Position numbers and translations under genes: made by a program
In this document: positions 19,594 to 32,899 of the stretch, piece by piece
Layout of the letters: each line of letters opens with the position of its first letter
How positions within the stretch are numbered: position 1 is the stretch's first letter
Origin: Clostridia bacterium
Lineage (GTDB): Bacteria > Bacillota > Clostridia > Oscillospirales > CAG-272
Assembly: GCA_017631855.1 (NCBI GenBank)
Contig: JAGBSP010000054.1
Coordinates: forward strand, 1 to 33,210
Direction: 5' to 3'
Length of the DNA stretch: 33,210 bases
Notes under the pieces: model-generated
The model's database searches: none
Told to the model about the DNA's origin: nothing
The model's input: the letters and a program-made list of their open reading frames with translations, nothing else

Positions 19594-20262
19594 ATGGGAA
19601 AAAAGCAGATTTCTCCTTCGATGATGTGCGTGGATTTTATGAACGTCGGCGCTGACCTTGCGACTATGGAAAAGCACGGCATCGAATATTTACATATCGA
19701 TATTATGGACGGCGAGTTCGTCAACAACTATACGCTCGGAACCGATTTTTGTAAGGTGATGAAGAAGAATTCGTCGATTCCGCTCGATATTCATCTGATG
19801 ATCGAAAAGCCCGAAAATAAGATGTCTTGGTTTGAGTTTGGTGAGGGTGACTACGTTTCGGTGCACTACGAGAGCACCAAGCATATTCAGCGCGCACTCC
19901 AGCAGATCAAGCAGAGAGGTGCAAAGCCGATGATCGCGCTCAATCCCGCAACGCCTCTTGAGGTACTTGAGTGGGTGCTTCCCGACATCGACGCTGTGCT
20001 CCTGATGACCGTCAATCCCGGCTTTGCAGGTCAGAAGCTCGTGCCCCAGACGCTCGAGAAGATCACCGCTTGCCGCAAGTTCCTCGACGAGAGAGGATAT
20101 ACGAACGTCGAGATCGAGGTCGACGGAAACGTCAGCTTTGAGAATGCGCGTAAGATGAGTGACGCGGGCGCCGATATCTTCGTCGCAGGCAGCTCCTCTA
20201 TGTTCGCAAAGGACATCACCCTCGACGAGGGCATCGAACAACTCAGAGAAGCAATTAAATGA
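19594..20262 (+). CDS. Ribulose-phosphate 3-epimerase family, allulose-6-phosphate epimerase-like
   Basis: TIM-barrel metal-dependent epimerase acting on C3 of a ketose phosphate. 222 residues. ISPSMMCVDF at the N-terminus recalls AlsE (ISPSLMCMD) more than ordinary Rpe. Metal and acid/base residues are in HIDIMDGEFV, LDIHLMI, MTVNPGFAGQ and IEVDGNV; the phosphate loop is FVAGSSSMF. Its GGAGG ribosome site lies within the end of the upstream dehydrogenase gene, which stops one base before. It is probably regulated by the divergent DeoR-1. A six-hairpin repeat follows from 20273. It could be the general pentose-phosphate epimerase, but the context favours a specialised hexulose-phosphate role. 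Confidence 0.88.
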   Translation: MGKKQISPSMMCVDFMNVGADLATMEKHGIEYLHIDIMDGEFVNNYTLGTDFCKVMKKNSSIPLDIHLMIEKPENKMSWFEFGEGDYVSVHYESTKHIQRALQQIKQRGAKPMIALNPATPLEVLEWVLPDIDAVLLMTVNPGFAGQKLVPQTLEKITACRKFLDERGYTNVEIEVDGNVSFENARKMSDAGADIFVAGSSSMFAKDITLDEGIEQLREAIK

Positions 20263-20272
20263 AGTTTTTGAT

Positions 20273-20428
20273 CAAGCTTTTTTCAAAAAGCTTGCGGAGT
20301 CCAGAGGCAGAGCCTCGGTCGCCCGTCGCAACGGGCGAAACTCCCAATACTTCTATAGCGCCCGAAAGGGTGAATTTATGTTTGCGAAGCAAACGGAAAG
20401 AGGGAAAACCACAAGTGGGGTTTTCCCT
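20273..20428 (+). repeat. Six-hairpin structured repeat, copy 1
   Basis: Six hairpins in a row. H1: CAAGCTTTTT/AAAAAGCTTG, loop TC. H2: GAGGC/GCCTC, loop AGA, flanked by CC and GG. H3: TCGCCCGT/ACGGGCGA, loop CGCA. H4: CGCCC/GGGTG, loop GAAA. H5: TTTGC/GCAAA, loop GAA. H6: AGGGAAAACC/GGTTTTCCCT, 8-base loop, followed by TTTTTGTGTTTTTG, so this last one can act as terminator for the epimerase operon. A 20-base linker with TCCCAAT joins H3 to H4. The same order recurs at 32749-32899. It fills most of the 335-base gap between the epimerase gene and feoA; no protein is convincingly encoded. Confidence 0.85.
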
Positions 20429-20521
20429 TTTTGTGTTTTTGTTAAAAATCATCAAATTCCAAAGGTTACTTTCATCAAACTGTCGTTTTTTGCCAAAAAA
20501 AGATTTTTTGCAAAATCTCTC

Positions 20522-32727: not shown

Positions 32728-32748
32728 GTCAAAAAGGAAAGTTTTCGC

Positions 32749-32899
32749 CCGCCTTTTTCAAAAGGCGGCACGAATCCAACGCCGTGGGGCGTTGGTCGCC
32801 CTCCGCAGAGGGCGAAATTCCCAATCGTTTATAAACGCCCGAAAGGGTGAATTTGCATCAACGATGCAAAGAGGGGAAACCACACGAGGGGTTTCCCCT
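32749..32899 (+). repeat. Six-hairpin structured repeat, copy 2
   Basis: Same order as at 20273-20428. H1: CCGCCTTTT/AAAAGGCGG, loop TC. H2: CCAACGCC/GGCGTTGG, loop GTGG. H3: TCGCCCTC/GAGGGCGA, loop CGCA. H4: CGCCC/GGGTG, loop GAAA. H5: TTTGCATC/GATGCAAA, loop AAC. H6: AGGGGAAACC/GGTTTCCCCT, 8-base loop. The linker before H4 is again 20 bases with TCCCAAT. Unlike copy 1, no T-run follows H6, so transcription from pgk to tpiA need not stop. It fills nearly the whole pgk-tpiA gap. Confidence 0.85.

What the first reader, a model, noticed from the sequence alone, without database searches (positions are those of the whole stretch)
20273..20428. Dispersed six-hairpin element with paired stem changes between two copies
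Seen directly: the two copies (20273-20428 and 32749-32899) hold six hairpins in the same order. Conserved parts are the H1 loop TC, H3 loop CGCA, the whole of H4 with its GAAA tetraloop, the 8-base H6 loop beginning AC and ending GG, and a 20-base linker with TCCCAAT. Variable parts are the stems, and they change on both sides together: H3 GT/AC to TC/GA, H6 A-T to G-C, and H1 and H2 nearly fully re-sequenced but still paired. This is covariation, so structure rather than sequence or protein seems selected. I know no named family with this exact order. It may be a structured non-coding RNA, a 3'-UTR module, or a small mobile element spread by a transposase elsewhere.
Basis: seen in the sequence. 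Interest (0 to 1): 0.85.

Follow-up and report, generated by a model that had tools for sequence, protein, structure and literature searches.

The report
Mobile hairpin repeat at gene ends
A small DNA repeat that folds into a row of hairpins has spread between genes in a group of gut bacteria, and one of its strands changes together with the last hairpin in a way that suggests a triple helix, which is unusual for such repeats.

Summary
The two copies belong to a dispersed family: 27 strong model matches in this draft genome, strong matches in 8 of 29 congeners, and related copies in four families of the order, its own included. No Rfam family matches it. Paired stem changes far exceed shuffles. 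Best reading: a modular, MITE/BOX-like small interspersed repeat that in this genome sits behind genes and ends in a terminator-like hairpin. Mobility: sense, antisense or not seen at pgk-tpiA, inverted ends in one species, one copy inside the RNase P RNA gene of a relative, not in its congener. No mobilising enzyme was found. Its purine strand (GAAAGGG) instead co-varies, in mirror register only, with the purine arm of H6 (45 distinct pairs, 0 of 5000 permutations; shifted, direct and Watson-Crick registers show no excess), as expected of a purine strand lying on the H6 duplex as a triple helix. The coupling is shown; the triple helix is inferred.

The parts
20262..20432 (+). Copy 1 (type A), whole unit, from the AAGTTTT overlapping the rpe stop codon (TGA 20260-20262) to the T-tract
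20273..20294 (+). H1 of copy 1 (CAAGCTTTT-TTCA-AAAAGCTTG)
20304..20316 (+). H2 of copy 1
20319..20338 (+). H3 of copy 1, CGCA loop; stem covaries across species
20339..20363 (+).
20364..20371 (+). P4: purine strand GAAAGGG plus T, mirror partner of the H6 5' arm; proposed third strand
20375..20399 (+). H5 of copy 1, variable covarying stem; proposed to turn P4 back onto H6
20401..20428 (+). H6 of copy 1, terminator-like hairpin; purine arm P6 at 20402-20408; TTTTT at 20428-20432
32739..32899 (+). Copy 2 (type A'), whole unit, 11 nt after the pgk stop codon and before tpiA
32749..32768 (+). H1 of copy 2
32776..32795 (+). H2 of copy 2
32796..32815 (+). H3 of copy 2, CGCA loop
32841..32848 (+). 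P4 of copy 2, GAAAGGGT
32852..32870 (+). H5 of copy 2
32872..32899 (+). H6 of copy 2; P6 GGGGAAA at 32873-32879; only two Ts follow the stem

Best explanation
A non-coding, modular, mobile small interspersed repeat of the MITE/BOX kind, found so far in one order of Clostridia. It spreads and swaps its hairpin modules. In this genome it lies mostly behind genes, often directly after the stop codon, where it would be read into the mRNA 3' end and its last hairpin H6 could act as a terminator. Shown: many copies, covarying stems, different modules at shared sites, presence, absence and reversal at one site, inverted ends in one species, a copy inside an RNase P RNA gene, and the position of copies in this genome. 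Inferred: that it is transcribed, that H6 terminates transcription, and that an enzyme supplied in trans moves it.
For: 27 strong matches (E<1e-8) in the own genome; E<1e-10 in 8 of 29 congeners. pgk-tpiA, 28 readable of 30 loci: sense in G000, antisense in G011, H1-H3 with another repeat and inverted H3-H1 in G020, not seen in the other 25 (one, G016, is cut by a contig end); of these G005 and G010 have a bare H6-like hairpin. rpe site: present in G000, a different repeat cluster in G020. 15 matches in G025, with a shared layout of inverted ends and modules. Whole element in the P12 loop of the RNase P RNA gene of G400 (640 nt); 364 nt without it in G250 of the same genus; the full-length matches in 78 of the 88 genomes (G400 not among them) span 335-491 nt. 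Context in G000: the upstream gene is on the same strand in 21 of 22 copies where it was called (of 26); of 19 with both neighbours called, 11 convergent, 7 tandem sense, 1 tandem antisense, 0 divergent.
Against: No constant target duplication could be read by eye at the G025 ends. No transposase gene was recognised: mapped G025 loci hold only the known modules between the ends, many run off contigs, and one full unit has only short overlapping ORFs, at most 106 aa, not compared with protein families. Y1 transposase (PF01797) is not associated with carriers: match at E<=0.001 in 4 of 9 strong carriers and 8 of 21 others. No long inverted ends were seen by eye around G000 copies. Only 12 of 26 own copies have three or more Ts after the stem, 7 have four or more. 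Outside G000 the same caller, trained on this window, finds the upstream gene on the same strand in 17 and the opposite strand in 11 of 28 called copies; in G025 1 against 4, so 3'-end sense placement is not general. A second gene call by longest ORF gave many antisense ORFs and was not usable. No transcript data.
Confidence: 0.75

Rival explanations
1. A structured element in which the P4 purine strand (GAAAGGGT) lies antiparallel on the purine arm of H6 as a third strand (G.G-C, A.A-T, T.A-T), with H5 as the turn. The triple helix would cap the 3' end of a transcript, or mark a folded single DNA strand for a transposase. This is a structural claim and is compatible with the repeat being mobile.
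For: 45 distinct P4/P6 pairs from 117 copies: mirror match 0.746 against 0.651 +/- 0.014, 0 of 5000 permutations; within-genome permutation of 66 pairs 0.758 against 0.709 +/- 0.009, 0 of 5000. Registers shifted by -2, -1, +1, +2, direct and Watson-Crick show no excess. Mutual information is highest on the mirror diagonal (z 4.7, 16.3, 3.9, 11.9, 3.4 at positions 0, 3, 4, 5, 7). Instances: GAAAGAGGG/GGGAGAAAA, GAAGAGG/GGAGAAA, GAGAGGG/GGGAGAA, GGGAGATGGG/GGGAAGAGGA. Internal T in P4 faces A in 5 of 7 distinct pairs, C in 1, G in 1. Tract lengths are equal in 26 of 33 combinations outside G015 and G004. P4 against the upstream linker shows no Watson-Crick excess.
Against: Copies are related, so permutations overstate significance. 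Many pairs mismatch at position 4. Diagonal position (6,6) shows nothing while its neighbour (6,7) has z 10.1, and three other off-diagonal cells reach 2.5-2.7. In G015 and G004 tract lengths are equal in 0 of 13 combinations by the same rule. G181 copies fit only with a one-base slip (by eye). Purine-motif triplexes are, as I recall, poor in RNA and better in DNA. No structural assay.
Confidence: 0.3
2. An ordinary intrinsic terminator or 3'-UTR module fixed by selection at gene ends, not mobile.
For: Position and orientation in G000; terminator-like H6 with T-tract in copy 1; bare H6-like hairpin at pgk-tpiA in G005 and G010.
Against: Reversed copy inside the pgk-tpiA pair in G011, copy in the RNase P RNA gene, weak placement rule outside G000, no strong match in 21 of 29 congeners, no T-tract of three or more in 14 of 26 own copies.
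Confidence: 0.1
3. A trans-acting structured non-coding RNA or riboswitch-like family.
For: Plan kept across four families of the order; covariation.
Against: No Rfam match at gathering score and only chance-level ones below it; high copy number; module differences at shared sites; few G-U pairs. Own promoters and classes of neighbouring genes were not tested.
Confidence: 0.07
4. Paired stem changes come from a copying mechanism (template switching, arm-to-arm conversion or module exchange) rather than selection on a fold.
For: Different 5' modules at three sites shared by G000 and G020, with H5 different at two and lost in G000 at the third, while unusual H4/H6 variants are shared at two; G-T only 1.1% of stem pairs; 124 of 188 distinct stems perfect; H6 inverted in one copy (C50).
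Against: Single-position compensations also occur; copying of hairpin arms does not explain mirror coupling of P4 with P6.
Confidence: 0.35

Closest known systems
BOX, RUP and SPRITE repeats of Streptococcus pneumoniae (PMC3049150; found passages and section 6 seen)
   Same: Small interspersed, folded; BOX is modular and varies in modules between strains; all three are over-represented between convergent genes; SPRITE resembles a terminator and lies near 3' ends of genes.
   Different: Other class of bacteria; no sequence comparison made. Here several covarying hairpins and a mirror-coupled purine strand; terms beginning covari or compensatory do not occur in that paper's main text.
MITEs (general; features as given in PMC3049150)
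   Same: Non-coding, folded, long inverted ends in G025, scattered insertions.
   Different: No target duplication or partner transposase identified; no long inverted ends seen around own-genome copies.
REP/BIME palindromes with RAYT (recalled)
   Same: Intergenic palindromic modules in combinations.
   Different: Much longer unit; no association with a Y1 transposase.
Intrinsic terminators (recalled definition)
   Same: H6 with following T-tract in copy 1.
   Different: Comes with further conserved parts; three or more Ts in only 12 of 26 own copies.

Membership tests
Any Rfam 15 family | Score at or above the gathering cut-off over the element | tested here: not met
   (window and 20 loci): no family on the element itself; the two hits are the RNase P RNA around the insert and a separate tmRNA.
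MITE | Terminal inverted repeats | tested here: inconclusive
   Met in G025; not seen by eye around G000 copies.
MITE | Target-site duplication | tested here: inconclusive
   Read by eye on G025 ends; no constant duplication.
MITE | Partner transposase with the same ends | tested here: inconclusive
   None recognised in mapped G025 loci; genomes were not screened for transposases other than Y1.
REP/BIME | Association with a Y1 (RAYT) transposase | tested here: not met
   4 of 9 strong carriers, 8 of 21 others.
BOX-type repeat | Modules differing at one site between genomes | tested here: met
   A, A' and B 5' modules at three sites shared with G020.
BOX-type repeat | Sequence homology to pneumococcal BOX | not tested
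   Not compared.
Intrinsic terminator | Stable hairpin followed by a T run | tested here: inconclusive
   TTTTT in copy 1, two Ts in copy 2; 12 of 26 own copies have three or more.
Purine-motif triple helix | Mirror-register coupling of third strand and purine arm | tested here: met
   with the exceptions told there.
Purine-motif triple helix | Physical formation | not testable with these tools
   Needs probing or melting.

The most novel reading that the evidence does not exclude
A mobile bacterial repeat whose conserved core is an intramolecular purine-motif triple helix (P4 on the H6 hairpin, turned by H5), kept by base-triple covariation across four families of an order. It would act as a stable 3'-end cap and terminator when transcribed, or as the folded DNA form recognised for its own movement.
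Probability: 0.28. Interest if true: 0.88.

Novelty: new variant of a known kind. Interest (0 to 1): 0.74.

Why it matters
It adds an order-wide family of modular repeats in uncultured gut Clostridia that changes gene ends and can sit inside an RNase P RNA gene. If the mirror coupling reflects a triple helix, it would be a natural triplex in bacteria backed by covariation, with many sequence variants ready for testing.

Tried and rejected
H4 as a GAAA-tetraloop hairpin: rejected. A helix between the upstream C-rich linker and P4: no excess over permutation (4.20 against 4.21-4.22). Strand-specific RNA selection by G-T against A-C mismatches with symmetric scoring: 19 to 5 (some stems lie in the flanks), p 0.11; weak. 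A Y1 transposase as mover: no association. Viral contigs: a 19-base pattern gave 2 contigs, but the model finds only a partial 19.6-bit match in one of them. Rfam at a loose E-value: 9 matches, all far below their gathering scores. Gene calling by longest ORF: unusable. Literature: nine searches showed no listing that names this repeat, a triplex of this kind in repeats, or this RNase P insertion; listings only, except PMC3049150, of which passages and section 6 were seen. Most papers of subscription journals are not held.

Rows dropped: of 27 oriented own copies two were left out of the model (C41 without H5; C16 contig start, probably the same copy as C31). Of 118 matches the 21 below 38 bits were left out of the copy set; most are H6 read backwards, but L217 plus strand (35.7 bits) is probably a real copy. 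The remaining 97 rows gave 87 distinct copies. L059 (C41) was left out for lack of H5. One search used 77 of the 85 sources.

Full report
What was checked. The two stretches were read, aligned and folded: both copies are present, share the described order of parts and fold far better than shuffles. The unit begins 11 bases before the stated start, at the AAGTTTT that overlaps the rpe stop codon at 20260-20262.

How many copies. BLAST with copy 1 gave 33 matches in the own genome, several of them parts of one copy. A covariance model of the H4-H6 part, built from 25 own copies, gave 42 matches, of which 27 are strong (E<1e-8). Two of these lie at contig starts (C31, C16) and may be one copy; many of the weaker ones are the palindromic H6 read backwards. 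Upstream of the shared core there are three exchangeable 5' modules, here called A, A' and B. Of 59 genomes searched, 13 had a match at E<=0.001; E<1e-10 occurs in the own genome and 8 of 29 congeners, and nothing was found in 6 other genera of the family. A wider sample of 394 genomes of the order, with only 11 candidates scored in each, gave 10 with E<=1e-4, own genome included, in families f1 (two more genera), f20, f23 and f26. 391 genomes of the class, scored the same way, gave 4, all of this order. An exact 18-base piece of H6 occurs in 39 stretches of named genomes: 38 from Clostridia or Oscillospiraceae MAGs, whose titles, where they name a host, name ruminants, and one Lacticaseibacillus. 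By equal contig lengths G020 is RGIG2022, G026 RGIG4042, G010 SIG646 and G011 SIG707.

Covariation. On 25 own copies aligned by sequence alone, 12 of 25 pairs change on both sides, all in H5 and H6. On 85 matches (80 distinct) fitted to the model it is 20 of 25, with H4 the weak helix. H3 gives 6 of 8 pairs on 27 distinct versions; there the score and the cells exceed all shuffles but the number of pairs does not. Versions slid by 1 to 3 columns score far lower in all three. These counts treat related copies as separate.

Movement. Between pgk and tpiA the repeat is sense in this genome, antisense in G011, a composite with another repeat in G020, and not seen in the other 25 of 28 readable loci. 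Behind rpe the relative G020, whose Pgk and Rpe are 98% identical, has a different cluster of hairpins. At three further sites shared with G020 both genomes carry a copy with different 5' modules; H5 differs at two and is missing in G000 at the third, while unusual H4/H6 variants are shared at two. At one site shared with G026 both have an A-like 5' module, but H2 and H5 differ. In G025 the copies carry long inverted ends of two types and a fixed order of modules; one full unit has only short overlapping reading frames. In G015 several copies form tail-to-tail pairs. In G400 a complete copy lies in the P12 loop of the RNase P RNA gene, on the opposite strand; the ribozyme model still matches from end to end with 202.5 bits across 640 nt, and G250 of the same genus has a 364-nt gene without it.

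Position. A simple gene caller trained on this window found the upstream gene for 22 of 26 own copies, on the same strand in 21. Where both neighbours were called (19), 11 pairs are convergent, 7 tandem in sense, 1 tandem antisense and none divergent. Outside this genome the same caller found the upstream gene in 28 copies, same strand in 17 and opposite in 11; with both neighbours called, 5 tandem sense, 4 tandem antisense, 1 convergent and 1 divergent. The pneumococcal repeats BOX, RUP and SPRITE show an excess between convergent genes, which their authors read as tolerance of parasitic insertions, with SPRITE possibly taken over as terminators (PMC3049150, section 6). Only 12 of 26 own copies have three or more Ts after H6.

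The mirror coupling. The 3' half of the supposed H4 hairpin, P4, does not track its own 5' side. It tracks the purine arm of H6 read backwards. With 117 copies from the genus and from other genera and families, reduced to 45 distinct P4/P6 pairs, the mirror match is 0.746 against 0.651 +/- 0.014 in permutations, 0 of 5000 as high; within genomes (66 pairs) it is 0.758 against 0.709 +/- 0.009, 0 of 5000. Shifted, direct and Watson-Crick registers show no excess. Mutual information is highest on the mirror diagonal; exceptions are one neighbouring cell with z 10.1, three cells at 2.5-2.7, and no signal at diagonal position 6. An earlier count on the genus alone agrees; there tract lengths are equal in 26 of 33 combinations but in 0 of 13 for G015 and G004. 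Hairpin arms that copy each other cannot produce mirror images. The geometry, with H5 as a turn, is that of a purine strand lying antiparallel on the purine arm of a duplex. This is the most novel part of the finding, and the step from coupling to triple helix is inference. Against it: relatedness of copies, imperfect matches, and the recalled weakness of purine-motif triplexes in RNA, which would favour a DNA form.

Verdict. A real family of a known kind, small modular mobile repeats, not found described in the searches made, with an unusual conserved core. What moves it, whether it is transcribed, and whether the triple helix forms remain open.

Noticed in passing
L263:1158-1797 (G400): RNase P RNA gene with the whole element in its P12 loop, antisense to the ribozyme; congener G250 lacks it.
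   Followed up: yes
own-genome flanks, e.g. L019, L021, L024, L028; related loop in G020 rpe site (L120): A second repeat hairpin with a near-constant loop (ACACTACGTACC) and exchanged but paired stems.
   Followed up: no
own-genome flanks, e.g. L012, L030; L120: A third hairpin repeat of the type GTTACTTTTCTTT...AAAGAAAAGTAAC next to several copies.
   Followed up: no
L007/L041 (G000:C50): H6 is inverted relative to the rest of this copy.
   Followed up: partly
L219, L221 (G015); L012 (G000:C44): A small hairpin is inserted in the H6 loop in two G015 copies; the C44 copy has an insert in H3.
   Followed up: no
G000:C41:11-85: Fragment of a Y1 transposase at a contig end.
   Followed up: no
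G015 loci L069, L087, L217, L218, L219, L221: Copies in tail-to-tail pairs a few tens of bases apart.
   Followed up: partly
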